From: Siniperca chuatsi
Lineage: Eukaryota; Chordata; Actinopteri; Centrarchiformes; Sinipercidae
Assembly: GCF_020085105.1 (NCBI RefSeq)
Contig: NC_058062.1
Location: forward strand, 24,330,562-24,394,561
DNA: 64,000 nt
Direction: 5' to 3'
Of the stretch, positions 31,032 through 56,513 are shown in pieces. Position 1 is the first letter of the stretch; the number at the start of each line of letters is the position of its first letter. Below the pieces are notes generated by a model. It had not been told where the DNA came from. It made no database searches and saw only the letters and a program-made list of their open reading frames with translations. The position numbers and the translations under genes are program-made.

Positions 31032-34000
31032 ATGTCCGCTGCCAGTCAAGTGGAGAGAGCTGTGTTGGTACGCTGTTCTGCGGGCAGGCGGGGACGCGCA
31101 GGGCTGTTTGGCTGTACGCTAGCTGCTTTACCGATCGGCCCGTCGGTTAATATAGCGCGTTGACATTCGTAATTGATATTCTGACAGAGTGTAGCTGGAC
31201 GTAAGTGACGTAGCTGCTGTTAGCCCTCGCGCTGCGGCGCAGGTGCGCCGGTCCCGTTAGCCAGGGCTCGCGCCGCCGCGCTGCCGCCGCGCCGCTGCCG
31301 CCGTCGCCGCGCCGCTGCCGCCGCCGCTGGGCCTGTTTGTGTCGGGCCACTTGATAAACTAAGCAAGTCGTGACCGTGAACATCCTCATGGAACCCGGGC
31401 TGTGAGCTCCGTTTCTCGGTCAGCGGCTCAGGGAAAGTGAGCTATGCTCCGTATTTCCTGCGCTGCTTCCCCCTAAACGGCCCATATTTGCATGTTTTAG
31501 CCCATTTGCTGCAAATCACACGAAGCGATAGTGTACATTCAGCAGTACGAAAAGCAAACATGCTGTTCACTGCCATTAATGCACTGTGATGAAAATGCCG
31601 AGCCAAGGATATATTGTTGCTCTGTAATAAATGGCCACCTGAAACCATGATATATGAATCGGGAAATGGTTATTAGTGATCAAAAGCAGGCCTGGTTTAT
31701 AGGAAATAACCTGGGAAAAGACACTTCCAAGTGTCTTCTGATGTTCCCCCTTTTAAATGTCCCTGCTGTTGACCAGTGGAGACCCAAAGTGCTCAATGAA
31801 AGGAATATTTAAGACATAATGAAGTAAATAATCATAGGGTTAAATACAGGTGAAATATCTAACCGTGAAATACTCAGTTTTCATTCCTTCGTGTCTTCCT
31901 TATGGAATGTTGGACACTTTGGGTCTGACGGAGGAGGGAAAGCCCTGTGAGTCTGCGTTCCTTGGTCCTCCTTGGGAATAGTTCTGATGCAGGTCTAGGG
32001 TCACTGACCAGCAGGGAAATGAGTCCTCTTCTACATGTTTAAGTCTGTAAAGTTTGATTCATATGTTAACAAATGATTGCATTATATTTAGTCTACCCCC
32101 GTCAGCACCTCAGCTGAATCTTTATTTACTGCAGGGCTGTTGTGTTATACTGCCTGACTTTTTGCTAGGAGCACCTGTAAACCGGCCCCTGGCTGTATAC
32201 ACCTGTAGAATAAAGTGAGGCGCAAAGAACAAATGACTGAAAGTGCAAGCTAGGAAAAAGCTGCATGTATATTTTAGAATGGAAAATGCATGGACTGTAT
32301 TAAGGGTTGCATCACACAACGCGTAGGAAATGAGAGCTGCTGTCCATGACGCTCCATTCTCTCTGACACCTCCACCACAGAATCCAGTTCCACCCCCAGG
32401 ACAAGCTCATCGGGAAGCCTTCCTGCATGAAAGAACATCTGCAGCATGCTACTGCAGATGTTGAACAACTAGAACCCCCTCAGAAAGTACAGTCAGCTCT
32501 GAGTCTTCTCGTACAGGGTCTCAGTGTTCCAAGCTTAGTCCACTCTGTGGTCCAGGTGGACTCCCAGGTACTTTTAGTCCTCAACTGCCTCTATGTCTCC
32601 TTTGCTGGAGACAGAGGAGTCTTCTTTCGCCTGAGGCAAAGACTTGTGAGAGTCACCTGTGTAGAGACGTCCACTGACATGGTGGTTTGGATGTCGCTTT
32701 TTGGCCCAGCCCATTTTCCAGTTTGTTTTCGACGATCATGTTGGAGTTGAATCGTTATTTCTTCTTTTTGGTAGGAGGAGGAATTCAACTGGCTGCTTAA
32801 AGAAGAAGTGCACGCTGTCCTTAAGCAGCTCCAGGATGTCCTCAAGGTAAAACTTAAGCTTTCATGTATACAGCTGCGTTTAGGCCTGAGGGATGTGCTT
32901 GAAGTCAGTATCACAACGTCAAAGGGCCATTCCACCAGTTTTACACACGAAGGTGCGTTTACTTGTGATGGTGAGTCCTACTCAACCTGCGAGAACACTT
33001 GTAGAGGCTCGTCTGGAAGTCTGGAGGAGCCCTGCCTGGGCTTGGAGACTTCACATTGAGTTTGAAAGACGTGAGTGTTTACCAGGCAGGCAGGGTCTAA
33101 CGTCCAGACGCTATCAAGTTGCATTATGGGAAATGTAGGATCCATTTTTTCTCTTAGCATTACCCACACTAGGGACTACAAGTCAGGATATCTCGGCCTC
33201 TGCTGCATTGATTTTGAACCCCAACTTAACTGATAAGGAATAATCAAAGAGTGCCGTTCAGTACAGTGAACTGTGTCCCACTGTGATGCACTTTGATGAG
33301 ACCAAGCGCCTCACACATGTAAAATAGTTTTTATTTACAGTTTGGTCAAAATCATTCATTTGGTCAGCAGAAATTTGTAAAATGATAAAAGAAAATGATC
33401 TGATCATCACCATATGATACCAGTGAAAGTGGATAAATGATATTGCATTATCACCCAGTCCTAGCTGTAATGGATTTTCAGTGGGCGTCGAACACTATTT
33501 ATTATAGTGATTATAGACCAGACACAGAATTAGTAGAAACATTCAGTCTGTGGAATTGTTAACCCACACCTGCAATGATGCATCTACAGTGTGAACTCTG
33601 GCCGTGACTTCACAACACTGAGATTAAGAGTGGATTCTGATTGTAAGTTTGCTCTGCCATCAACAGGAGGCATCGAGACGTTTCTCCATGCCGACACCCG
33701 GCCTCGAGAGTCAGCTCAAACAGGAAAACTTCATCCTCGGCAGCTCAACGTAATACCCCTCTCTTTATGGTGTTCAGTTACTATGGCCATAGTGAATGCC
33801 ATACAATGATTAGCTCGTCCTGAGTGAAATAAGTAAGCCGTGTCTGTTACATAACAATGTCTTCCTGTGGAGGAAGTGGCTAGATGGGTGATAGATGGAT
33901 TGAAATATGCTGAGACACAGAATGAGGTGCCCTCCCTCGCACACTGTAAAGCCTTCCCTTGCCATAATTTGTCGTTCCTGTTGTTCCTCTGCTGATGTTG

Positions 34001-37000
34001 AAATAATAATGGGATGTGTTGTTTGGCAGCATGGATCAAGTGAAGGGGGTGCTGACTCTGCAGGGAGAGGCTCTGACTCAGGCTGTGAGTTTGTCTAGTT
34101 CTCACTGAGGCTGCATTCCCCTTATGTGAAAACAAAACATTGATTTAAGCTGATGTGCCCCTTGTTAATGATTTGCTTTTCTTAACAGGACATAAACCTG
34201 AAGGTTGCAAAGAGCAGCCAAGTGCTGCACTTTCAGTTCAGAGAGGACAAGCAGTGGAAACTGCAGCAGGTACAGTATGTCAGTGTGTAACGCTACCAGA
34301 ACCATGGAAACAAAGCTGTAGCTTTTTTTCCTCTTATAAGGGGTTTTTTCCACTTTTTGTCCACTACAATGGACATTTTGACTTTAAAATAATAGCAGCA
34401 GTTTGGTCTATATATTTGTATTTCATTACACAGCTGATTATAGGCCAGTTAGTGTTCTGACATCCTCTGAGCAGAGTTTGTTGAAACCCACAGAGCAGAT
34501 AAGCCATCAGGTCAAACATCTCAGCCGACAGGTATGGCAAACACAGTATACATAGCTGTAAATAGGCTATGATGCAATTTAATCATTACATTTGACATTT
34601 AATATATTGGATCACAGTCTGTACCTTTTTATAAAAAAAAAATTCCCTCATTTTTAGATTCCAAAGATGAACGTTCCCTCTCATCCCACATATCCAAGCA
34701 CTCACTGTGTGGAAGTTCATTTACAAGAAGCTCAGTAACCTCTGCAGGTGTACACTCTGAAGTATTAGAAATGTTATGGAATTATCTTGCTAACTTAAAT
34801 ATTAACTTGATACTATTTAAATAATTGTTTTCAAAAAAAGAATAATTTTATGAATGAAATTATCTGTCAGATTAATGATATCAGCTGCCTTTTCACGTCA
34901 CTGCGGACATTTGGGATGGGCATTCAAGTTTGAAACAACCCTGTGTTCGCCACTTTGGGGAAATCTCCAAATAAAATGTTTGCTAGCGTATTGTTGCCTG
35001 TGAGGTTGCAGACACGAGTGTATGCTTTGTTAAGGTGAGGTTGTTGTCCAGGGATAGCAACATGCTAGTTAGCTTAACATGTTGTTAGCTGGGTCCAGTT
35101 GGGCCAGCCATCATAGCTTAGCCTAAGCAGAGACAATGTAGATAGAAGGCCTGCCTAAGCAGCTGAGTATCTGCTCTTTGCTAAGGTGAGAGCAGGATTT
35201 AAAGGCAGGGCTAGAGAACGGCACAGCCTCATACCCACTGCAGGGCCTCATAATAGGCTTCCATAGGAATGCTCATCCAAATTTGGGCACATTTCACCAT
35301 GTATATTGATAACTAATACAGTCTGACATACTTTCTTATCTTGGCTTTAAATACAAAATGTCTCCGTTCATCCATCAGATCCAGGATGCCAGGAACCATG
35401 TGAGCCAGGCTCTCCAGCTGCTCAGCAGCCATGATGAGAGCTACCACTTCAAGACCGGGGCTGAGGTTAATAAGGTCTGTGCTCTATTTCCTCATGGCAA
35501 CCATGTCCTGTTCCAATCAGTACAGAGCTGAATATGGAAGACATCCCAGTCTTTTACTGTGATACTAGCTTCATCTTTCTATTACTGCCATAGCTCATGG
35601 ATGCAGTGATGCTCCAGCTGACGCGAGCACGAAACCGCCTCACCACCCCAGCCTCCATGACGCTCCCTGAGCTGGCCACCAGTGGTCTGATGGTACAGGA
35701 CATAAGACAGTACACATTACACACACACTGCTTTAACACACTGAGGACCAGCATATTCATTCTGATAAAATCTGATAATGAAGATGAAGAATATTAATAT
35801 TAACAAACTTACAAAAGCATTACATGACATTACATTTATTTAGCTGATGCTTTCATCCAAAGTCACTTACAGTAAGTTAATTTCAACAATGTGGATACAA
35901 CCCAAAAACTCCCAAAGTACATCTTCATCAAATATGACTGCTTCAAACAATGAGAGAAAGACTTGTGTTTTTTTATGGGCCAAGGTGCAGTCTGAACAGT
36001 TTTCAGCCTTCGACGGAAGATGTGTAGAGTTTCTACTGTCCTGCTGTCAGTGGGGGGCTCGTTCCACCATTGTGGAGCAGTCGTTATTTTGCTGAGCGGT
36101 AGCTGGGCGCCGCTCGTAGTGAGGGAGTAGCAAGCCGATTGGCAGTAGCAGAGCGTAGAGGACGGGCTGGGGTGTTTGGTTGGACCATGTCTTGGATGTA
36201 AGATGGGCCTGAGGGTGGGTAGGTGAAGGCTGAGGAGACTCTTCGTATGGCCGACTCTTCGGCTTCGTATAATGAGGCTGCCACTTCAAACAAGGAGTGA
36301 CTTGTTAAACTAAAGGGCTGATTGCTCAACTGGCTACAGAAGTATATACCAAGATTATAAGAATAGACTCATTGACAGTTACGAGACACAACACAATTTA
36401 CTAATACCGATGGTTAAAATTCAATAAAACTGAAAAGGCCAGAGCAGGAGACTAACTAGATTATAGTCAGCTGACACCAAGAGCAAGCGCAGCACACAAT
36501 TAGACTAAATGATTAGTTAACCATCACAGCAGATAGAGCACAGTCAAGCAGAGAAAATGCCTATTTGAAAAGTGTATGTGTGTGTGTGTGTATATATACA
36601 TATACACACTGTATGGCCAGAAGTATGTGTAAACCTATGTCTTCATACTTTGTGTACCTTTGGTTTCGGCTGTTTACCTGGTTTGGTCTGGACCCCTGTA
36701 GTTTCAATGAAAAAAACCTTAATGCTCCATCATACGATGCTATTTTAGACCACTGGTTCCCAACTGTTTTGGCTTTTGACCCACATGAAGCTTTGTCTAC
36801 TTGTGACCCCTGAAATTGTCAATGCGCAATGGCCAATTAAACCAAAGATTGAAATTGTTTTATTTGGATACTTTTTAGGGGCCTGGAGATGTAAAATTAT
36901 AACTCACAGGCAAAAAGCAAAGAATAGAAAAAAAATCTGAAAAATGAAACAGAATTGCGTGTAGCATGTTTCAACATGACAATGCCCCCGTGCACAAAGC

Positions 37001-40000
37001 AGTTCCGTAAAGAAATGGTTTTCCCAGTTTGGTGCGGAAGAACTTGACTGGCCTGCACAGAGTCCTGACCTCAACTCCGTCAAACACCTTTATCATACTC
37101 GTCAGTGCTCTCTGTGGACAAACTACATCACACACACCTAAAGACAAAATGTCAGTTTATGTGGCATGAAGCCTCGTACTGTTATTCCATATTCCCCTTC
37201 TTCCTCTGTTCACCCTGTTTGTCTCCTTCCATCTCCAGAAAATGTTCACTCCTCCCATGCCTGGGGATGTGATGGTGAACTTTTACATCAACTTAAGCAA
37301 ACTGTGTCTGACTGTCTACCAGCTTCATGTGCTACCTCCCAACACCACTAAGGTTAGAACTTGTGACTCTGCAACACTATATGAAGCTACACACAGCATC
37401 ATGTGACTGATGATTTCATGTTTTGTCTCTCATCTTAATAGAATTTCAAGCCAGCTGGAAGCTCAGTGTTGCATAACCCTGGAGCAATGTTGTAAGTCCT
37501 GCTTCATTTCTTTTCTTCTTTCTGTAGCATACAGTATACATAAACAGATTAAAGTAAATAGTACATACAGTGCCTCTGGAAAGTATTCACATTGCTTCAC
37601 TTTTTCCACATTTTGTTATGTTACAGCCTTATTCCAAAATGGATTAAATTCATTATTTACCTCAAAATTCTACAAACAAAACCCCATAATGACAATGTGA
37701 AAGGAGTTTGTTTGAAATCTTTGCAAATTTATAAAAAAAAAAAAACACATGTAGATAAGTATTCACAGCCTTTGCTCAATACTTTGTTGAAGCACCTTTG
37801 GCACCAGTTACAGCCTCAAATCTTTGAGTATGATGCTACAAGCTTGGCACGCCTGTTTTTGGGCAGTTTCTCCTATTCTTCGGTCAGTCGGGTTCAGGTC
37901 TGGGCTCTGGCTGGGCCAGTCGAGGACATTCACAGAGTCCCGTAGCCACTCCTTTGTTATCTAGGCAGTGTGCTTAGGGTCGTTGTCCTGTTGGAAGATG
38001 AACCTTCGCCCCAGTCTGAGGTCCAGAGCGCTCTAGAGCAGGTTTTCATCAAGGATGTGACATTGCTGCGTTCATCTTTCCCTCGATCCTGACCGGTCTC
38101 TCAGTTCCTGCCGCTGAAAAACATCTCCACCGCATGATGCTGCCACCACCATGCTTCACTGTAGGGATGGTGTTGGCCAGGTGATGACGGTGCCCGGTGT
38201 CCTCCAGACATGACGCTTGCCATTCAGGCCAAAGAGTTAAATCTTTGTTTCATCAGACCAGAGCATTGTGTTTCTCATGGTCTGAGAGTCCTTCAGATGC
38301 CTTTTGGCAAACTCCAGGCAGGCTGTCGTGCCTTTTACTGAGGAGTGGCCTCCGTCTGGCCCCTCCACCATACAGGCCTGACTGGTGGAGTGCTGCAGAG
38401 ATGGTGGTTTGTGCTCTGACATCCACTGTTAACTGTGGGACCTTATATAGACCGGTGTGTGCCTTTCCAGATCATGTCCAATCAGCTGAATTTACCACAG
38501 GGGGACTCCAGTCAAGTTGTAGAAACATCTCAAGGATGATCAGTGGAAACAGGATACACCTGAGCTCAATTTTGAGTGTCATGGCAAAGGCTGTGAATAC
38601 TTATGCACATGTGATTTTTTTATTTGCAATAAATTTCAGATTTCAAACAAACTTCTTTCACGTTGTCATTATGGGGTATTGTTTGTAGAATTTTGAGGAA
38701 AATAATGAATTTAACCCATTTTGGAATAAGGCTGTAACATAATATGTGGAAAAAGTGAAGCGCTGTGAATACTTTCCGGATGCACTGTACATTGAATGCA
38801 TTAAAAAAGAAGTGATAGTAAATGGAAAGCAACAGATAGTTACTGATAATACTTAAATTGAGAAATACTACACTGGCTTTCCAGGGCAGTTTGGAAATCA
38901 GTCTGGAAATCCTGGAACTCTTTTAGGCACTATACCACTTTCAGCAAGTGTATCTTTAAGGTCCCTTTAATCTCTCTTTGCTGTTTGCTGTGAACATTTT
39001 CCTCCACAGCGAGCTCAACAACAACCGGTTTGAGGTGAGCCACGTTCACAAGGTGGAGTGTGTGGTGCCTTGGCTTAATGATACCCTGGTATTCTTCACC
39101 ATCTCCCTGCAGCTCTGTCAGCAGCTCAAGGACAAGGTGGGTGGTTCTCCTGGAAGATGACTCTGAATATTTTAAAAACACATTAAAGAATCGATTTTGA
39201 ATCCAATTGTGACACCAAGAATCAAATTGTGATATTCCCAAAGATTCCTACCCCTCATTAACAATGGATTCAATGACTATGTGTAATATGAAAGGTGTCA
39301 CTCATAGTGATGAACCCACAGAGAATTATCACCATCTCTGCAGTTCCCCTCAGCTCTATGGAGCGTTTTAGCCCCATATTTTTCTCAGGAGTTGGTGGAG
39401 ACCAAAAACAGCTATAACAAGAGTGAATATTGGACTTACATTCACCAGGGCAACACGAACATGACTCCAAATAAATACTAATGTTGCTCTATGACTTTAT
39501 CAACATTATAAGGTGATAATATGTCAGATGTTGGGTTTACAGCTTGTTCCACTCGCTCCAAGTGGCTAAAAAAATCAATTAACACAGCCTCAAGGTATTT
39601 ATTAATCACAGTACATAGATTTTTAATTCTGCTGCCAATGTCCACAAGGGATCTGGTAATTGGCAAAGCTTGTGTCTCTCATGTACAGTGGTGTGCAAAA
39701 GTGTTTGCCCCCTTCCTGATTTATTATTTTTTTGCATGTTTGTCACACTTAAATGTTTCAGATCATCAAACAAATTTAAATATTAGTCAAAGATAACACA
39801 AGTAAACACAAAATGCAGTTTTTAAATGAAGGTTGTTATTAAGGGAAAACAAAATCCATACATGGCCAAAATTCCTCCACAGCACTGTAAAAGACTCACT
39901 GTAAGTTATCGCAAACACTTGATTGCAGTTGTTGCTGCTAAGGGTGGCCCAACCAGTTATTAGGTTTAGGGGGCAATCACTATTTCACACAGGGCCATGT

Positions 40001-40368
40001 AGGTTTGGATTTTGTTTTCCCTTAATAATAACAACCTTCATTTAAAAACTGCATTTTGTGTTTACTTGTGTTATCTTTGACTAATATTTAAATTTGTTTG
40101 ATGATCTGAAACATTTAAGTGTGACAAACATGCAAAAAAATAAGAAATCAGGAAGGGGGCAAACACTTTTTCACACCGCTGTAAATAGCTAGTGATTAAG
40201 TGACTACTTGAAGGCTTCTGTTGGCCTGAAATACAGCATATGGCTAACACAGGTTTATTTAAGCTTTGCCCGGTTGGTTGGTAAATATACATCAAACTAA
40301 GCTCCTCTGTCCTCCCATCCCTGCAGATATCTGTCTTCTCCAGTTTCTGGAACTACAGACCTTTCTAA
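31032..40368 (+). CDS. rogdi: Rogdi atypical leucine zipper protein (complete)
   Basis: ROGDI is the metazoan relative of yeast Rav2, part of the RAVE-type complex that promotes V-ATPase assembly; loss in humans causes Kohlschütter-Tönz syndrome. Coding exons: 31032-31067, 32775-32846, 33667-33749, 34030-34084, 34189-34269, 35379-35474, 35594-35692, 37239-37352, 37442-37491, 39010-39136, 40327-40368. They join in frame to 284 aa, against 287 in human. Exon 1 gives [12 protein letters not shown], joined to [20 protein letters not shown]. Other landmarks are [75 protein letters not shown] and the C-terminus [10 protein letters not shown]. Every one matches the vertebrate family. Exon 6 has a weak donor (GTCTGT). 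The gene is on the same strand as glyr1. Introns carry two Tc1-type elements, an L2 fragment and several MITEs. Confidence 0.96.
31225..31332 (+). repeat. GC-rich (GCC)n-type tract, CpG island in rogdi intron 1
   Basis: This imperfect GCC/CGC array contains repeated blocks of the form CGCGCCGCTGCCGCCG, spanning about 31268-31330, inside a CpG-dense stretch 160-260 nt downstream of the rogdi exon 1 donor. It marks the CpG island of the rogdi 5' end. The minus strand is open but codes only low-complexity sequence. Confidence 0.8.
32430..32590 (-). mobile_element. LINE reverse-transcriptase fragment (rogdi intron 1)
   Basis: The minus strand reads [24 protein letters not shown] and SMLQMFFHA, interrupted by stops. 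This is the thumb/C-terminal region shared by many fish non-LTR reverse transcriptases (YLGVHLD...KGQSRLYFLRRL). It is short, 5'- and 3'-truncated and dead. It ends about 185 nt before rogdi exon 2. Confidence 0.7.
32923..33212 (+). repeat. Percomorph-type dispersed repeat (rogdi intron 2)
   Basis: It starts GGGCCATTCCACCAGTTTTAC and ends near CAGGATATCTCGGCCTCTGC, with GTTGCATTATGGGAAATGTA between. A related, interrupted copy lies at 40872-41815. I recognise the type from other percomorph introns but know no name. Non-coding. Confidence 0.65.
35820..36260 (+). repeat. Dispersed fish repeat (rogdi intron 7)
   Basis: It begins ACATTTATTTAGCTGATGC followed by ATCCAAAGTCACTTACA, a motif widespread in fish genomes, and continues with a block containing GAGCTCGTTCCACCATTG-like sequence and GGGAGTAGCAAGCCG. 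Probably a composite of two dispersed elements. No real ORF is seen. Confidence 0.5.
36606..37115 (+). mobile_element. Degraded Tc1/mariner-type element with nested insertion (rogdi intron 7)
   Basis: The left part CACTGTATGGCCAGAAGTAT resembles an element terminus. Near the right end the plus strand reads [13 protein letters not shown] then, after a frameshift, [19 protein letters not shown], the C-terminal catalytic region of a Tc1-like transposase. Between them lies another common fish repeat (CACTGGTTCCCAACTGTTTTGGC, about 36750-36810). Nothing here is functional. Confidence 0.6.
37568..38787 (-). mobile_element. Tc1-like transposon, near full length, inactive (rogdi intron 9)
   Basis: The element is about 1.22 kb, flanked by TA, with inverted termini (CAGTGCCTCTGGAAAGTATT and AATACTTTCCGGATGCACTG) and inverted arms of about 200 bp. 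The minus strand keeps transposase pieces such as [11 protein letters not shown], the segment around a catalytic Asp of the DDE domain, but is broken by stops and frameshifts. It lies between rogdi exons 9 and 10, opposite to gene transcription. Confidence 0.85.
39686..40181. mobile_element. Tc1/mariner-type MITE, long copy (rogdi last intron)
   Basis: About 496 bp flanked by TA, starting CAGTGGTGTGCAAAAGTG and ending CTTTTTCACACCGCTG. The arms at about 39686-39860 and 40005-40181 are near-perfect inverted repeats of each other. The 145-bp middle derives from a larger element, as it has a second internal CCCTGTGTGAAATAGTG end at about 39990. It is the same family as 21735-21958. No ORF is kept. 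It ends 145 nt before rogdi exon 11. Confidence 0.85.
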
Positions 40369-44998: not shown

Positions 44999-45370
44999 AC
45001 TTGTATATATTTATTACTAAGGAAAACCTTCTAATTGAAATTTTAACATTCTGTCAACAAACAAAAGAAGAAGTGACATTCAAATCTGCAGAAGCATAAA
45101 AACACAGACAGTTGAGTGTTTCCAGCTCCTCCGTGGTATCCTAGCAATAAAGCCCACATAGCAGTGACTGTCAACAAGATCACGTGTTAAATTTCCAAAC
45201 TGGGTAGCAAAGGGCTTGTGAACAGCAATTCATTCTATGTGCAAGTAGACTACATTTGTTTACAGACTGGTCCAGTAAAATCAAAGCTTCTGCTTTGGCA
45301 CAGGAGTCAAACTATAAGGCTCTGCTTCTAGCTTCATCAACCTTCACAATACTTGATCAGAGTTCAGCTG

Positions 45371-48300
45371 TTAGGGCTCCAGAGCCATGTTGTCTATCCC
45401 GACCTTCCGTCTGCGAGGCTGTTGAGGAAACAAAGGAATCATTTTCTTTCATATGACACTGCTATCATTACCAGAGTGCATAGTCCCAAATGACCTCAGC
45501 TCACTTTCAGTTCATTTCACTACTACTTGTCTGCTTATAATTTATTAATCAAAAAAGAGACGAGTTCTGTTTAACACCATTGATCGACTTGTAAACCCTG
45601 CTCCTTCAACTGTTTCGGCCTTGGTCATCGGCCCACACCGAGTTTCAAGGAGAATTAGTCATTGTAGAAATTCTAATAAAACCATCTGCTAGACATCTTG
45701 GTGTTGTGTTTGATCAAAATCAGAATTTTGATCATCACATTAAGAAATTGGTTCAGTGTTGCTTTTTGCAACTCAGAAATATTGCCAAAATCAGTTCAGC
45801 ATTGCATAAGAACATCGTAGAGCCTGGATTACTGTAACTCCTTATTTTCTTGTTTAAGCGGGTCTGAAATTGCTCGACTTCAGTTGGTTCAGAATGTGGC
45901 AGCCGGGCTTCTGACAAACACTGAGCCCCCATTCTGGCCCACTTACATTGGCTTCCTGTACGCTTCAGAATTCAGTTAAAGATCCTCCTGATCACATTCA
46001 AAGCCCCCTTATATTTCATAATTTATAACCCAATATTCTGCACCAAGATTGCTAAGATCTGCAGACCAATTGGTCTCAAATGTCCCACGGTCCAGGCTCA
46101 AAACAAAGGGGCACCGTGCTTTTACCGCTTTAACACTGTGGAATTGCCTCCTCCTCACTGTCAGGTCAGCTGAGTCTGTACCACATTTTAAAAAACTTTT
46201 AAAAACCCACTTGTATAGGCTGGCGTTTTTATAAATTCGCAGCTTGTAATCCCTATTGGTTTCATTTGTCTTTTAATTTTGTTTTGTTTATTATAATGCC
46301 TTTATCGCTGAGTATCTGTTTCCATTTATTAAATTGTAGTTTTCACTTGCTGTTTTATGCTGTGTACTATTATGCATTTTTATTAACTGTGAAGCACTTG
46401 GAAACTTCTGTTTTGAAAAGTGCTATATAAATAAAGCTTATTTACTTACTTACATAACAGGATCAATGACGACACTTCGTTTTCTCTAAGTTGCTTAAAC
46501 GTCGGTATTGAATGCCAGGAATAAGTTTAGGAATGGTCCTGTCTTTGATACATAAGGAATGAGAAGGTTGACTTGCCGAGGTGAGGTGAGGAGGTGGATT
46601 CAGAGCCTAGCTGATTTAATGAGCCATTCGCAGTGTCACAGTACCGGCCGTGTGTACTTAGACTTGCATGGCTTAATCTTTGAGACAAGCATATGCTACT
46701 GGCAGGATCAACTTGGTTCAACCACCTCTCTGTTTCCCCGTCTTTATGCTCAACTGATCATGTGAGTGGTATCAATCTTCTCATCTACCTCTCAGCAAGA
46801 AAGTTATTAAGCATATTTCCCAAAATGTCAAACTATCCCTTTAAACATTGCATGTGTAGCTCAGATGTTAACGGTGAGTCCTCCGTGCACGCCAAAGTTA
46901 GTCACGGAGTTCAAGGTTCTGTGCTTGGACCGATTCTATTCACCTTATATATGCTTCCTCTAGGCAATATTATTAGGAAACACTTCATAAACTTCATTGT
47001 TATGCGGATGATACCCAATTATATCTATCAATCAAGCCAGATAAAACTAACCAGTTAGCTAAACTTCAAGCATGCCTTAAGGACATAAAGACCTGGATGA
47101 CCTGCAATCTTCTGATGTTAAACTCTGACAAAACTGAAGTTATTGTACTTGGCCCCAAACACCTCCGAGACACATTATCTAAAGATATAATTACTCTAGA
47201 TGGCATTGCCCTGGCCTCCAGCACCACCGAAAGGAACCTCAGTTATCTTTGATCAGGATTTATCCTTTAACTCCTACATGAAACAAACTTCAAGGACTGC
47301 CTTCTTTCACCTACGTAACATTGCAAAACCAGGCACATCCTGTCTCAAAATGATGCAGAAAAAGTAGTGCATGCATTTGTTACTTCTAGGTTGGACTATT
47401 GCAATTCCTTATTATCAGGCTGCCCGAATAAGTCCCTTAAGACTCTCCAGTTGATCCAGAATGCTGTGGCACGTGTACTGACAAGAACTAGGAAAAGAGA
47501 TCATATTTCTCCATTATTAGCTTCTCTGCACTGGCTCCCTGTAAAATCCAGAATAGAATTTAAAATCCTTCTCCTCACCTACAAAGCTCTTAATGGTCAG
47601 GCACCATCGTATTTTGAAGATCTTATAATACCTTATTACCCGACTAGAACACTGCACTCCCAGGATGCAGGGTTACTTGTGGTTCCTAGAGTCTCCAAAA
47701 GTAGAATGGGAGCCAGAGCCTTCAGTTATCAAGCTCCTCTCCTGTGGAATCAGATCCCTGTTTGGGTTCGGGAGGCAGACACCATCTCCACATTTAAGAG
47801 TAGGCTTAAGACTTTGCTCTTTGATAAAGCTTATAGTTAGGGCTGGCTAAGGTGAGCCCTGAACCATCCCTTAGTTATGCTGCTATAGGCCTAGACTGCC
47901 GGGAGACTTCCCATGATGCACCTCTTTCCTCTCTCCTCCTCTCCATCTGTATGCATTTTTAAACCATTACTGCATGTTACTCAACATCTTCTCTCTCCCG
48001 TAGTTCTGTGCTTTCTCGTTTCTCTCCTCTCTCCTTCTGTCTCTTTCAGCAGGTATTTCTGCCTCTGGAGCTGCAGAGTCTGGATCTGTGGTTGTGGGCC
48101 GCCTGCTGCACCCGTGTTCCTGCTCGACAACTGCTACTACAGTAGTTGTTATTGGCTCTGTTACTAATACTGACATTATTCTTCCTATAGCTGTCATTCC
48201 TATTATTACTAATTTATTAATATTAACGCTACAATTACATTTCTACTATTTTAAAAATTATAGGTGGTATTGCATTGCATTGTGCCCTCTAAAATTGAAT

Positions 48301-50317
48301 TGCATTGAATTGCATTGAATATATATAGATTTGTATTTTGTGGATTCATTACCTAATTTGAGCATAAAGACTAAAAATATTTTTGGGGGATTTTTACCCT
48401 GTATTTCCCTACTTTGTGCTGGTTGGTTCTTAGATATGTGGACATGTTTTTGTTGCAGGCCTGTCTTGGTTATGAATGGCTTCTCTATGGACTCTATGGC
48501 TGTGTCCGAAATCACCCCCTCATCCACTACTCCCTATATAGCAGACACTCAGCAGTTTACTAAGTCATCAGTCACCCAACAACTGTAATTTTCACATCTA
48601 TAAAATGTACATGCCATGGACACTACTTTTTGTTCCATTGAGGGAATTTTTGAGGCACTGTATAGTAGTATAAATGTCAGTCAGGTGACTGTTGGATTTC
48701 ATCCTGAAGAAGGCAGTGTGCCCAAATATCAATCTTTAGAACTTGAAATATGAGTGTTCAGCTTTCCCATTCTGTCTGTGAAGTCTGCCTGCGAGCCAGC
48801 ACCTCACTACGACAGCTGTGTGTGCTCCTTCACTTCTCTCTTGTATGTGTGTGTTTACCTTCTCGTCATCACAGCAGCAGCAGCAGCAGCAGCGGATGAG
48901 GACCAGGATGACCAGCAGCAGAACCATACCTGACAACACACACAGCACAACAGTGACAGAGCAGACAGAGTACAAGTCTGCAGTGTTCACTGCAGAGCTT
49001 TATTCTTGTCAGGCTGGAAAAGCTCCTACATCTGCAGCCAGACCTTCACATCAAGCTAAAACTGCAGTGACACAGATTCATGAAACTTTCAGGGTGTGGT
49101 TTAGCAGACACGTAAAGGACTACATTTTTGTAAGAATTTGGTCCATTTGTACCATGCAGCATGCAGTAGCTGCAGATTTAGTATGCTGTATTCTAGAAAA
49201 CTCCTGGCAACTAGCATTATAGATAAGAATGCAAAAAATAAAGCCAAAGCTAGTATTGGCTTTCCATGAGAAACCAGACCAGAAATGATTGTTCCCATTC
49301 ATTTTATAATGGACATTTGTGTTGTTGCTGTCTAGTTTGTAGCGCCGGCATTGATGTATTATGAGCTCTGGTTAGCATCATAGCTAGGCTAGTGTTAGCG
49401 TTAGCAGACGCCTGGAACAGTTGGCTCAAAATGGTAAATGGACTGTACTCACATAGCTCCTTTCTAGTCTTTCTGACTACTCAAAGCACAAAAGGAAGGA
49501 GCCATCTGATTGGCTACAGACACTTACCTGTTGAAAAAAATGCATATGTGAATCGAGCCAGAGGAGTCTCAAAACACACACACACAAATGCAGTGAAGTT
49601 CACCAGTGACAGCAGTTGGTATATAAAAGTAACAACATCCAAATATGTTTTTGATGAAAATTGCAAGTACTTTTAACTACATATATATTTGTGGATTTCT
49701 ATTACATTTATTTAAAACTATTTGTGTGTGCATCAGAAATACTTTTGTCAACCATATCTTTTTATATGTGGATTTGTTTTACATTTATATACAACGATAA
49801 ATATTTTCATGTGCATTATAAAATATTTTTGTGGAGTCATTTATATATAAATCCCGAAATCACCTGGCAGTGTAAGCATCTGACATATCAGTGAATGAAG
49901 CTGGACATCCGCTCAGCTCAAAAGTTGTTTGCATCTTTACTAACAGAATACTGTCCCAGTGGGAATGACTGACTCGCTGACTCAGTTTTCTTCCTCCTGA
50001 CCACCCATCATGTCTGTGGCTGAAGAGGTTGTGGGGAATATTCAAATGTAAACGTTTCATTGCTTTCTGCTCATTTTCTATTTTGCATTTGCCTTCAGTA
50101 AAAACAGGTTTATGAATATGGACCCTGATGCTTATGTGTTATAGAAAGCATCAGCGTTTTTGCCTGTAATCCATTTCCTTCACTCACCGATGAAGATGAA
50201 GAAGACTGCAAAAGAGGCGATGTCCCAGTCAGACTGGAAGAACTGCTTGGACTGCAGTCTAGAAACCACATCGTTGAACTGATCCTCAAACTGCTGCTGC
50301 AGGTTCCTCCGCTCCAT
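45371..50317 (-). CDS. smim22: Small integral membrane protein 22 homologue (82 aa, 3 coding exons)
   Basis: Coding exons on the minus strand: 50317-50188, 48929-48859, 45418-45371, all GT-AG with matching phases. The protein starts [18 protein letters not shown], then [20 protein letters not shown], then a single membrane span ([18 protein letters not shown]). Seven consecutive Cys and DDEK follow, then [15 protein letters not shown] and the stop. Human SMIM22 (CASIMO1, 83 aa) has the same plan: QFFQS-W before the span, a Cys cluster after it, and a basic tail ending in DNLALEP. It also sits beside ROGDI in the same convergent orientation. The human microprotein is membrane-associated and reported to interact with squalene epoxidase; any such role in fish is inference. 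The Cys cluster is a likely palmitoylation site. A noncoding first exon ending at donor 51047/51046 is probable. The second coding intron holds two LINE relics. Confidence 0.92.
45590..46441 (+). mobile_element. L2-type LINE 3' end, inactive
   Basis: The plus strand shows reverse-transcriptase C-terminal pieces: [16 protein letters not shown], a YCNSL-like motif, [30 protein letters not shown] and TLWNCLL. All are split by stops. The element ends with GAAAAGTGCTATATAAATAA and AGC, the typical L2-type tail. It lies antisense inside the smim22 intron. Confidence 0.8.
46862..48325 (+). mobile_element. L2-type LINE, longer 3' fragment, inactive
   Basis: The plus strand begins within the reverse-transcriptase palm ([20 protein letters not shown]). 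The catalytic YADD box follows only after a frameshift ([11 protein letters not shown]). Next come [15 protein letters not shown] and a 157-aa open stretch (47367-47840) with [37 protein letters not shown] and LLFDKAYS. The 3' end has AATTGCATTG repeats at about 48290-48322. It is a 5'-truncated CR1/L2-clade copy, antisense to smim22. The long ORF is a relic, not a host gene. Confidence 0.85.
48872..48893 (-). repeat. CAG/CTG repeat encoding the poly-Cys of smim22
   Basis: Seven plus-strand CAG units are read as TGC on the minus strand and encode most of the Cys7 run in smim22 exon 3. Length variation here would change the number of cysteines without a frameshift. Confidence 0.8.
49425..49510 (+). 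repeat. Common fish repeat fragment (smim22 intron)
   Basis: AAATGGACTGTACTCACATAG followed by TTTCTAGTCTTTCTGACTAC and TCAAAGCACAAAAGG matches a short dispersed sequence I recognise as frequent in teleost genomes (…TATAGCGCTTTTCTAGTC…). It is non-coding. Confidence 0.5.
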
Positions 50318-50333
50318 CGCTGTCTGCTTTCAG

Positions 50334-50336
<3 letters not shown>

Positions 50337-50366
<30 letters not shown>
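50337..50366 (-). repeat. (TG)15 tract at the smim22 3' splice site
   Basis: Thirty nt of perfect CA on the plus strand are read as TG on the minus strand. They end about 10 nt upstream of the CAG acceptor for the exon with the smim22 start codon, in the place of a normal polypyrimidine tract. Tandem acceptors (CAG then ACAG) follow; both keep the same ORF. Confidence 0.85.
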
Positions 50367-50368
<2 letters not shown>

Positions 50369-51046
50369 ACCAGTCGGCACACTTAATGCCACATAGTAAC
50401 TTATTAATAACAGTTCACAGAAAAAAGTGGGAATGTTGGAAAAGGTGAATGTTTCTCCTGAAGAGGAAAGGCAACTGACCTCTCCCCTTTCGATCTGAAC
50501 AAATGTTTTCCTACATGCTAACCTGTATGAGAGCGCGTCAGGGACCAGAAAGACCAACCCTTCAGGAGACAGGGGCCCTCAAAGTTGACCCACATTGGAC
50601 CCCCAGCCCACCAAAGACACAGATGTCTTCTTCAAAAATAAACAGAACAGTTTGGTTCTCTGATTATGGAGACACAAGGTTATCCACAATGTCACTACTT
50701 CTGGTCCAAAATAAAGAACTAAATGTGGAAACGCAGATTTACTACTTTCTGTTTTCACGTGTTGGTTCCATCTCCTGAAGGTTTCCTGTTTGCCCCTTTT
50801 GCACAGCGAAAATCCACCTTTAACCACTTTCTCACACCAAACACCGTGCTATTCGCCACAGCGGTCCGCGCGCTTCCTGCTGTGCTGGCTGGAATCCGTC
50901 GCCATCATCGCATTAAGGCAGCAGCCTTCATTCACGCGCACGGTTTGAAAGATAGGATTTGATAAAACATTTTAACGTAGCTACAGCAAATGAAAGCACG
51001 GTCGTTATAAACTATACAGTGTTATTCGGAAGAGCAGGTTGCTTAC

Positions 51047-51167: not shown

Positions 51168-54100
51168 GATGACTCTGAAGCAGACTGAAGCAGACTGCTG
51201 GACTCTGAAGCAGACTGGTGGACTCTGATGCAGACTGGTGCAGACTGCTGGACTCTGGTGCAGACTGGTGGACTCTGATGCAGACTGAAGCAGACTGGTG
51301 GACTCTGAAGCAGACTGGTGGACTCTGAAGCAGACTGAAGCAGACTGGTGGACTCTGATGCAGACTGAAGCAGACTGCTGGACTCTGAAGCAGACTGGTG
51401 GACTCTGGTGCAGACTGGTGGACACTGATGCAGACTGGTGGACTCTGATGCAGACTGGTGGACTCTGATGCAGACTGGTGCAGACTGGTGGACTCTGATG
51501 CAGACTGGTGGACTCTGATGCAGACTGGTGGACACTGATGAAGACTGGTGCAGACTGGTGGAGAATGGTGCAGACTGGTGGACTCTGATGCAGACTGGTG
51601 GACTCTGATGCAGACTGGTAGACACTGATGCAGACTGGTGGACTCTGATGCAGACTGGTGGACTCTGATGCAGACTGGTGGACTCTGATGCAGACTGGTG
51701 GACTCTGATGCAGACTGGTGGACTCTGATGCAGACTGGTGGACACTGATGAAGACTGGTGCAGACTGGTGGAGAATGGTGCAGACTGGTGGACTCTGATG
51801 CAGACTGGTAGACACTGATGCAGACTGGTGGACACTGATGCAGACTGAAGCAGACTGCTGGACTCTGAAGCAGACTGGTGGACTCTGATGCAGACTGGTG
51901 CAGACTGGTGGACTCTGATGCAGACTGATGCAGACTGGTGGACACTGATGCAGACTGGTGGACTCTGATGCAGACTGGTGGACTCTGATGCAGACTGGTG
52001 CAGACTGGTGGACTCTGATGCAGACTGGTGGACTCTGATGCAGACTGGTGGACACTGATGCAGACTGGTGGACACTGATGAAGACTGGTGCAGACTGGTG
52101 GACTCTGATGCAGACTGGTAGACACTGATGCAGACTGGTGGACTCTGATGCAGACTGGTGGAGACTGATGCAGACTGGTGCAGACTGATGCAGACTGGTG
52201 GACACTGATGCAGACTGGTGGAGACTGGTGGACACTGATGCAGACTGGTGGACTCTGATGCAGACTGGTGGAGACTGGTGGACTCTGATGCAGACTGGTG
52301 CACTCTGATGCAGACTGGTGGAGACTGATGCAGACTGGTGGAGACTGGTGCAGACTGGTGGAGACTGGTGCAGACTGGTGCAGACTGGTGGAGACTGGTG
52401 GACTCTGATGCAGACTGGTGCACTCTGATGCAGACTGGTGGAGACTGGTGGAGACTGGTGGACTCTGATGCAGACTGGTGCAGACTGATGCAGACTGGTG
52501 GACTCCGATGCAGACTGGTGCAGACTGGTGGAGACTGGTGCAGACTGGTGGAGACTGGTGGAGAATGGTGCAGACTGGTGGACTCTGATGCAGACTGGTA
52601 GACACTGATGCAGACTGGTGGACACTGATGCAGACTGAAGCAGACTGCTGGACTCTGAAGCAGACTGGTGGACTCTGATGCAGACTGGTGCAGACTGGTG
52701 GACTCTGATGCAGACTGATGCAGACTGGTGGACACTGATGCAGACTGGTGGACTCTGATGCAGACTGGTGGACTCTGATGCAGACTGGTGCAGACTGGTG
52801 GACTCTGATGCAGACTGGTGGACTCTGATGCAGACTGGTGGACACTGATGCAGACTGGTGGACACTGATGAAGACTGGTGCAGACTGGTGGACTCTGATG
52901 CAGACTGGTAGACACTGATGCAGACTGGTGGACTCTGATGCAGACTGGTGGAGACTGATGCAGACTGGTGCAGACTGATGCAGACTGGTGGACACTGATG
53001 CAGACTGGTGGAGACTGGTGGACACTGATGCAGACTGGTGGACTCTGATGCAGACTGGTGGAGACTGGTGGACTCTGATGCAGACTGGTGCACTCTGATG
53101 CAGACTGGTGGAGACTGATGCAGACTGGTGGAGACTGGTGCAGACTGGTGGAGACTGGTGCAGACTGGTGCAGACTGGTGGAGACTGGTGGACTCTGATG
53201 CAGACTGGTGCACTCTGATGCAGACTGGTGGAGACTGGTGGAGACTGGTGGACTCTGATGCAGACTGGTGCAGACTGATGCAGACTGGTGGACTCCGATG
53301 CAGACTGGTGCAGACTGGTGGAGACTGGTGCAGACTGGTGGAGACTGGTGCAGACTGGTGGACTCTGATGCAGACTGGTGGACTCTGATGCAGACTGGTG
53401 CAGACTGGTGGAGACTGATGGACACGGATGCAGACTGGTGCAGACTGGTGGACTCTGATGCAGACTGGTGCAGACTGGTGGACTCTGATGCAGACTGGTG
53501 GAGAATGGTGCAGACTGGTGGACACTGATGCAGACTGGTGGACTCTGATGCAGACTGGTGGACACTGATGCATACTGGTGCAGACTGGTGGACACTGATG
53601 CAGACTGGTGCAGACTGGTGGACACTGATGCAGACTGGTGGACTCTGATGCAGACTGGTGCAGACTGGTGGAGACTGGTGGACTCTGATGCAGACTGGTG
53701 GACTCTGATGCAGACTGATGCAGACTGGTGGAGACTGATGCAGACTGGTGCAGACTGGTGCAGACTGGTGGACTCTGATGCAGACTGGTGGAGACTGGTG
53801 GACTCTGATGCAGACTGGTGCAGACTGGTGGAGACTGATGGACACGGATGCAGACTGGTGGACTCTGATGCAGACTGGTGCAGACTGGTGGACTCTGATG
53901 CAGACTGGTGGAGAATGGTGCAGACTGGTGGACACTGATGCAGACTGGTGCAGACTGGTGGAGACTGGTGGATACTGGTGCAGACTGGTGCAGACTGGTG
54001 GAAACTGGTGGACACTGATGCAGACTGATGCAGACTGGTTCAGACTGATGCAGACTGGTGGACACTGATGCAGACTGGTGGAGACTGATGCAGACTGGTG

Positions 54101-54760
54101 CAGACTGATGCAGACTGGTGGACACTGATGCAGACTGGTGGACTCTGATGCAGACTGGTGGACACTGATGCAGACTGGTGCAGACTGATGCAGACTGGTG
54201 GACACTGATGCAGACTGGTGCAGACTGGTGGACACTGATGCAGACTGATGTAAACTGGTGCAGACTGGTGGACTCTGATGCAGACTGGTGGACACTGATG
54301 CAGACTGGTGGACACTGATGCAGACTGGTGGACACTGGTGCAGACTGGTGGACACTGATGCAGACTGATGCAGACTGGTTCAGACTGATGCAGACTGGTG
54401 GACACTGATACAGACTGATGCAGACTGGTTCAGACTGATGCAGACTGGTGGACACTGATGCAGACTGGTGGAGACTGATGCAGACTGGTGCAGACTGGTT
54501 CAGACTGATGCAGACTGGTGGACACTGATGCAGACTGGTTCAGACTGATGCAGACTGGTGGACACTGATGCAGACTGATGCAGACTGGTGCAGACTGGTG
54601 GACACTGATGCAGACTGGTGCAGACTGATGCAGACTGGTGGACACTGATGCAGACTGGTTCAGACTGATGCAGACTGGTGGACACTGATGCAGACTGATG
54701 CAGACTGGTGCAGACTGGTGGACACTGATGCAGACTGGTGCAGACTGATGCAGAGTGGTG
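51168..54760. repeat. Giant decamer minisatellite (about 3.6 kb, roughly 358 units)
   Basis: The array is built of 10-bp units in near-perfect register: CAGACTGGTG alternates with GACTCTGATG, GACACTGATG or GAGACTGGTG. Minor variants are CAGACTGAAG, GAGAATGGTG and AAGACTGGTG. The left edge (to about 51400) and the right edge (from about 54000) use different unit mixes. Because 10 is not a multiple of 3, all three minus-strand frames encode the same cycling peptide (TSLHQ, SASES, PPVC motifs) without stops; these are not genes. The array lies between the smim22 promoter and the cog1-side spacer. Confidence 0.97.
51771..53350 (+). repeat. Perfect 790-bp tandem duplication inside the minisatellite
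   Basis: Units 51771-52560 and 52561-53350 are identical over all 79 decamers that I compared block by block, including rare variants such as GACTCCGATG, CACTCTGATG and CAGACTGGTA. Matching stops at both outer edges. This is a recent unequal exchange or replication duplication, or an assembly artefact. Confidence 0.93.
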
Positions 54761-56180: not shown

Positions 56181-56181
56181 A

Positions 56182-56513
56182 GCGGCGGGATCCAGGGGCG
56201 GATCCAGCGGTGGGATTCAGGGGTGGGATCCAGGGGCGGGATCCAGGGGCGGATCCAGCGGCGGATCCAGGGGCGGGATCCAGGGGCGGGATCCAGCGGC
56301 GGATCCAGCTTCGGATCCAGGGGCGGATCCAGGGGCGGGGTCCAGGGGCGGATCCAGCGGTGGGATCCAGGGGTGGGATCCAGGGGCAGATCCAGCGGCG
56401 GATCCAGGGGCAGGATCCAGCGGCGGATCCAGGGGCAGGATCCAGGGCGGATCCAGCGGTGGGATTCAGGGGTGGGATCCAGGGGCGGATCCAGGGGCGG
56501 GATCCAGGGGCGC
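56182..56513 (+). repeat. GGATCC (BamHI-site) minisatellite
   Basis: About 28 irregular units of 11-13 bp: GGATCCAGGGGC, GGGATCCAGGGGC, GGATCCAGCGGC and GGGATTCAGGGGT. The plus strand is G-rich with frequent GGGG and GGG runs. Both strands are open in at least one frame (GGIQGRDPGA-type plus, PGSAPGSRPWI-type minus), a low-complexity effect. The array joins directly to a LINE tail on its right. Confidence 0.93.

What the first reader, a model, noticed from the sequence alone, without database searches (positions are those of the whole stretch)
45371..50317. A complete 82-aa smim22 gene spread over 5 kb on the minus strand
Three short exons (130, 71 and 48 coding nt) reconstruct a microprotein with QFFQS-W, one membrane span, Cys7 and a tail ending in DNMALEP. 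No single open frame reveals it, and its second intron is filled with antisense LINE relics. Phase-perfect joining and its position convergent with rogdi make the call strong. Fish SMIM22 is easily missed in annotation.
Basis: partly seen in the sequence, partly recalled or inferred. Interest (0 to 1): 0.75.

Follow-up and report, generated by a model that had tools for sequence, protein, structure and literature searches.

The report
Fish copy of microprotein gene SMIM22
The sequence holds what looks like an intact fish version of SMIM22, a small membrane protein already known in humans, split into three short exons; the call is right but ordinary, apart from a hint that its family is related to a known calcium-pump inhibitor.

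Summary
Three minus-strand coding exons (50317-50188, 48929-48859, 45418-45371), with GT-AG introns, join in frame into 82 aa. The product matches Pfam PF15831 (SMIM5_18_22) at 86.1 bits, E 2.2e-24. Exon 1 alone covers profile 4-36 and exon 2 covers 37-56, a seamless join. Among 380 candidate acceptors after exon 1, the proposed one scores best against the same genome's smim5 and smim18 (27.9 vs 19.0 bits). Exon 3 rests on its acceptor (2nd of 322) and on a tail that I recall as SMIM22-like.

It is smim22 rather than smim5 or smim18: those lie on C20, and beside gtf2e2 on C3. The window gene sits tail to tail with rogdi, then glyr1-type domains and periplakin. smim5 has an intron at the same profile position and phase.

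Likely function, inferred from human papers: an epithelial single-pass membrane adaptor. No RNA or ortholog data could be tested. A lead: an smim6-like (endoregulin) frame beside smim5 also resembles this family, just under Pfam's cut-off, hinting at common ancestry with a SERCA inhibitor.

The parts
50188..50317 (-). smim22 coding exon 1 (130 nt): N-terminal segment, QFFQS-W motif, first half of the membrane span
   Evidence: PF15831 profile 4-36, 45.4 bits alone; genome-wide hit 47.1 bits; donor TCG|GTGAGT
48859..48929 (-). smim22 coding exon 2 (71 nt): rest of membrane span and Cys7 tract (TGC x6 + TGT)
   Evidence: PF15831 profile 37-56, 19.1 bits alone, under the cut-off of 29.3; best of 380 candidate acceptors; Cys codons
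45371..45418 (-). smim22 coding exon 3 (48 nt with stop): [15 protein letters not shown]
   Evidence: acceptor 2nd of 322 candidates by an approximate weight matrix from recalled frequencies; tail resembles human SMIM22 by recall only
48930..50187 (-). intron 1, 1,258 nt, phase 1
   Evidence: same profile position and phase as the smim5 intron of this genome
45419..48858 (-). intron 2, 3,440 nt, phase 0
45010..45015 (-). AATAAA, candidate polyadenylation signal
46977..47840 (+). LINE fragment, antisense to smim22
   Evidence: partial RVT_1 match at 46977-47249, 24.5 bits, below cut-off 29.6; 47319-47840 shows no relevant Pfam domain but has 39 other scored copies at 95-96% identity (3,586 candidate places, 40 scored)
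45600..46450 (+). second, older repeat, LINE-like by eye, antisense to smim22
   Evidence: no Pfam domain in 45595-45834; 61 other matches from 40 scored of 702 candidates; the nine longer than 500 nt are 66-81% identical, shorter ones reach 95%
46608..46718 (-). fragment of the 5' end of 18S rRNA inside intron 2
   Evidence: Rfam SSU_rRNA_eukarya 83.1 bits in a 501-base scan; not listed in the first scan of 14 kb at E 0.01
32775..40368 (+). rogdi exons (from an early exon to the stop codon at 40366-40368), convergent with smim22; first exon not placed
   Evidence: PF10259 hit at 37227-37352, only hit in genome; PDB 5xqh Protein rogdi homolog, E 2.4e-59 for concatenated exon pieces; end of frame

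Best explanation
An intact fish ortholog of SMIM22 (CASIMO1). Shown: a three-exon coding sequence whose product belongs to the SMIM5/18/22 family, with one strongly hydrophobic span (residues about 33-55), a run of seven cysteines at its end, then a basic stretch and a short tail; and the neighbours rogdi, glyr1-type domains and periplakin. Inferred: the protein crosses the membrane once with the cysteine/basic side in the cytosol, the cysteines are lipid-modified and help sorting to endosomal membranes, and the helix binds partner membrane proteins in epithelial cells. By analogy with human SMIM22 this would include squalene epoxidase, with effects on lipid droplets and the actin cytoskeleton (passages of reviews PMC12190854, PMC7565808, PMC10199267; the original Oncogene 2018 paper was not seen).
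For: Joined product PF15831 86.1 bits, E 2.2e-24; exon boundary falls exactly between profile positions 36 and 37; proposed exon 2 ranks 1st of 380 acceptors against a profile built only from this genome's smim5 and smim18; smim5 intron is also phase 1 at profile 36; rogdi ends tail to tail 5.0 kb away, glyr1-type domains and periplakin beyond it; smim5 (59.0 bits) and smim18 (54.5 bits) located elsewhere; 19-residue hydropathy maximum 3.45.
Against: No transcript, protein or other-species data were available. Exon 3 is not covered by the Pfam profile, and one rival acceptor (45050) scores slightly higher (8.5 vs 7.9). The exon 2 acceptor is only fair: 18 of 466 AGs, itself included, score as well or better. 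The human tail, sequence and gene order are recalled. The topology is weakly supported: charge -2 before the span, +3 in residues 56-73 but only +1 over the whole tail 56-82. One human paper places SMIM22 in the nucleus with GALE (PMC11364787 passages), which does not fit a membrane adaptor. All functional steps are by analogy.
Confidence: 0.93

Rival explanations
1. The gene is smim5 or smim18 (another member of the family), not smim22.
For: PF15831 covers all three and does not tell them apart; the next gene on the other side is cog1-type (Vps51/EXO84/COG1 N-terminus, 67.6 bits), and I recall human COG1 on 17q25, where SMIM5 also lies.
Against: The same genome has a clear smim5 (72 aa by the acceptor I chose, 59.0 bits) with an smim6-like frame beside it on C20, and an smim18-like gene beside gtf2e2 on C3. 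Rogdi, glyr1-type and periplakin neighbours fit SMIM22.
Confidence: 0.03
2. Exons 1 and 2 are right but the real 3' end differs (read-through of the exon 2 donor, or another exon 3).
For: Exon 2's frame runs on past the donor to 48736; acceptor 45050 scores slightly higher than 45418 and is followed by 17 open codons.
Against: The 45418 acceptor is 2nd of 322 and its short frame ends in a tail that matches human SMIM22 by recall; total length 82 aa against 83 in human and 86 in mouse (table passage of PMC10199267).
Confidence: 0.06
3. A dying or dead copy, broken up by repeats: LINEs in intron 2, a 3.6 kb minisatellite upstream.
For: Two LINE-like pieces of different age and an 18S fragment in intron 2; 20-bp minisatellite 51184-54760 less than 1 kb upstream of the ATG.
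Against: Frame, splice sites, span, cysteines and a polyadenylation signal are intact, and the genome search listed no second smim22-like match.
Confidence: 0.03

Closest known systems
SMIM22 / CASIMO1 (human K7EJ46, 83 aa)
   Same: Family (PF15831), size, single span followed by cysteines, convergent rogdi neighbour; tail ...DN-ALEP (human span, cysteines, tail and gene order recalled)
   Different: Cys7 encoded by a TGC repeat; young LINE in intron 2; function not tested in fish
SMIM5 (this genome: C20, 72 aa, 59.0 bits)
   Same: Same family; intron at the same profile position and phase
   Different: Other locus, no DN-ALEP tail; 14 of 56 aligned positions identical to the window protein. 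A second acceptor would make it 95 aa
SMIM18 (this genome: C3 beside gtf2e2)
   Same: Same family (54.5 bits)
   Different: Coding frame in one exon, longer tail
SMIM6 / endoregulin (SERCA3 inhibitor, PMC10199267 and PMC8818594 passages)
   Same: The smim6-like frame of this genome matches PF15831 over the membrane span (27.0 bits, E 5.9e-6); 39.4 bits against a profile of the three paralogues, 0 of 1,000 shuffles as high, highest 27.7
   Different: Below the Pfam cut-off of 29.3, and not among the 3 matches of the genome search; its start was not found; the name SMIM6 rests on adjacency to smim5 and recall; no SERCA role of SMIM22 is known to me

Membership tests
SMIM5/18/22 (PF15831) | Whole-protein score over the curated cut-off (29.3 bits) | tested here: met
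   86.1 bits, E 2.2e-24, profile 4-56 of 56
SMIM5/18/22 (PF15831) | Single hydrophobic span followed by clustered cysteines | tested here: met
   19-residue hydropathy maximum 3.45 starting at residue 37; CCCCCCC follows
SMIM22 | Not the ortholog of smim5 or smim18 | tested here: met
   smim5- and smim18-like genes found at C20 and C3; their names rest on recall and neighbours; no tree with other vertebrates possible
SMIM22 | Neighbourhood with ROGDI (convergent), GLYR1, PPL | tested here: met
   rogdi, glyr1-type domains, two of three below their cut-offs, periplakin; the human order it is compared with is recalled
SMIM22 | C-terminal tail DN-ALEP | tested here: inconclusive
   Tail present, but the human tail is recalled; a text search for tail and QFFQS strings found 0 papers
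SMIM22 | Spliced, translated transcript | not testable with these tools
   No RNA-seq or ribosome profiling
SMIM22 | Interaction with SQLE, effect on lipid droplets and actin | not testable with these tools
   Known only from review passages on the human protein
Regulins (SERCA-inhibiting micropeptides) | SERCA binding and inhibition | not testable with these tools
   Only a possible family link through the smim6-like frame

The most novel reading that the evidence does not exclude
SMIM5, SMIM18, SMIM22 and endoregulin (SMIM6) descend from one ancestor, SMIM5 and SMIM6 by tandem duplication. SMIM22 would then be a regulin-like protein whose helix docks on a membrane enzyme or pump (a SERCA or other P-type ATPase, or squalene epoxidase) in epithelia.
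Probability: 0.15. Interest if true: 0.55.

Novelty: new member of a known kind. Interest (0 to 1): 0.22.

Why it matters
It shows that a microprotein gene with three tiny exons can be called from sequence alone, and gives a fish locus for SMIM22, whose human protein the papers seen here treat mainly in cancer cells. The more useful by-product is the possible kinship of the SMIM5/18/22 family with endoregulin, which would give these proteins of unclear mechanism a concrete, testable mode of action.

Tried and rejected
Rejected: smim5 or smim18 identity (both found elsewhere); pseudogene (signals intact); chance join. The 18S fragment in intron 2 was tested as a possible rRNA-headed repeat family: of 20 matches listed in the genome only the window copy spans the whole 271 nt, 18 others lie within the 18S part (two of them pieces of one place), and 1 matches a different part, so no family was seen. 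A scan of viral contigs found no relative (96 pattern matches, none confirmed). A text search for five strings found 0 papers. Fish literature: a six-term search gave 15 listed papers with no smim22; smim22 with zebrafish gave 6 papers, none about a fish smim22 gene by title (listing seen, plus passages of one of the six, PMC6868825). A kinship of SMIM6 with SMIM5/18/22 was not seen in the listings or in the passages read; full texts were not read, so this is not a claim that it is unpublished. NCBIfam gave nothing for smim22 and only a spurious weak hit for the smim6-like frame. A comparison with evpl near smim5 was planned but did not complete. Structure prediction was not run: by my reading of its rule, a spliced protein, not readable in one stretch from the window, is not accepted.
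Full report
What was checked. The stretch was read on the minus strand and the three proposed exons joined by script. Lengths are 130, 71 and 48 nt, the sum 249 nt codes 82 residues and a stop, both introns begin GT and end AG, and an in-frame stop lies upstream of the ATG. AATAAA starts at 45015, 356 nt past the stop codon.

Is it more than chance? The joined product matches Pfam PF15831 (SMIM5_18_22) with 86.1 bits, E 2.2e-24, over profile positions 4-56 of 56; the next family has E 0.029. Exon 1 alone matches 4-36 (45.4 bits) and exon 2 alone 37-56 (19.1 bits, under the cut-off of 29.3), so the two pieces abut without gap or overlap. As a control I joined exon 1 to each of 380 AG acceptors downstream and scored the products against a profile built only from the smim5 and smim18 of this genome: the proposed exon 2 came first with 27.9 bits, the next had 19.0, exon 1 alone 9.3. 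With approximate splice matrices (recalled frequencies), the exon 3 acceptor is 2nd of 322 candidates downstream of exon 2; among 466 AGs in 45000-51000, 2 score as well or better, itself included. The exon 2 acceptor is weaker: 18 of 466 score as well or better, itself included. For the two donors the counts are 6 and 12 of 363.

Which family member? In the 718.8 Mb genome the PF15831 model gave 3 matches from 28 scored candidates. C3: a single-exon smim18-like protein (54.5 bits) beside gtf2e2 (TFIIE beta in the PDB, E 4e-27; frames). C20: smim5, whose exon 1 ends in a phase-1 donor at profile position 36, the same place and phase as in the window gene. Two acceptors were possible for its second exon, giving 72 or 95 aa; I used the 72-aa form, which scores 59.0 bits. 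Window: rogdi lies on the plus strand (only PF10259 hit in the genome; PDB 5xqh) and ends at 40366-40368, tail to tail with the window gene. On its far side are PWWP and NAD-binding frames as in glyr1 (18.8 and 22.1 bits, under their cut-offs; 38.4 bits, over it) and periplakin (PDB 4q28, E 2.4e-45). By recall, human chromosome 16p13.3 has SMIM22, ROGDI, GLYR1 and PPL in this order. On the other side of smim22 is a cog1-type gene (67.6 bits for its N-terminus), which by recall lies on human 17q25.

The intron. Two LINE-like stretches lie on the plus strand, antisense to the gene, together 1,715 of 3,440 nt by ends I set by eye. The 47319-47840 part has 39 other scored copies, 95-96% identical (3,586 candidate places, 40 scored), so it is young. 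For 45600-46450 the nine matches longer than 500 nt are 66-81% identical, while shorter ones reach 95% (62 matches with itself, 40 of 702 candidates scored), so it is older. Only one frame showed a Pfam domain, a partial reverse transcriptase at 24.5 bits, under its cut-off; the frames 47319-47837 and 45595-45834 showed none of relevance, so their LINE nature is read by eye. Between them lies about 110 nt of the 18S rRNA 5' end (83.1 bits; the first, wider scan at E 0.01 did not list it).

Function. The protein has one span (hydropathy maximum 3.45), net charge -2 before it, +3 in residues 56-73 and +1 over residues 56-82, seven cysteines and a short tail. Reviews on the human protein (passages only) say that SMIM22/CASIMO1 has 83 residues, is expressed in stomach and digestive tract, co-localises with LAMP1, binds squalene epoxidase, and affects lipid droplets, actin and proliferation (PMC12190854, PMC6868825, PMC7565808, PMC10199267). 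One paper reports binding to GALE and co-localisation with it in the nucleus (PMC11364787 passages), which fits poorly with a membrane adaptor. I infer a membrane-adaptor role in fish epithelia; none of this was tested here.

A lead beyond the finding. About 1.6 kb past the smim5 stop on C20 (20329831-20329634) is a frame that looks like smim6 (endoregulin, a SERCA inhibitor: passages in PMC10199267 and PMC8818594). It matches PF15831 at 27.0 bits, E 5.9e-6, just under the cut-off of 29.3 (26.3 bits in a longer form), and scores 39.4 bits against a profile of the three paralogues, against a maximum of 27.7 in 1,000 shuffles that keep the composition of each segment. The genome-wide search did not list it, and its start codon was not found. 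The SMIM6 name rests on position and recall; a human study groups SMIM5, SMIM6, RECQL5 and SAP30BP under one expression signal, which fits their being neighbours (PMC7449091 passages). This suggests that endoregulin and SMIM5/18/22 share ancestry. Whether this is already in print was only checked by listings.

Verdict. A correct, well-made call of an ordinary gene: an intact fish smim22. What remains open is transcription, the exact 3' exon and function.

Noticed in passing
L025, genome C20 20329831-20329634, minus strand: An smim6-like (endoregulin-like) frame about 1.6 kb past smim5 resembles the SMIM5/18/22 profile, just under the Pfam cut-off, suggesting common ancestry of the two groups.
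   Followed up: partly
window 51184-54760: A 3.6 kb minisatellite with a 20-bp unit, about 183 copies, less than 1 kb upstream of the smim22 ATG; all three minus-strand frames are open for 973-1,175 aa, a by-product of the repeat. A genome search for the unit did not complete.
   Followed up: no
window 46608-46718: A lone fragment of the 18S rRNA 5' end between two LINE-like pieces; 18 other matches in the genome lie within the 18S part only, no repeat family seen.
   Followed up: yes
window 47319-47840: Young LINE family: 39 other scored copies at 95-96% identity, 3,586 candidate places of which 40 were scored.
   Followed up: partly
window 48874-48891: The cysteine run is coded by six TGC codons in a row, a triplet repeat that could vary in length between individuals.
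   Followed up: no
window 56181-56512: A second, G+C-rich minisatellite (13- or 25-bp unit) between smim22 and the cog1-type gene.
   Followed up: no
   Followed up: no
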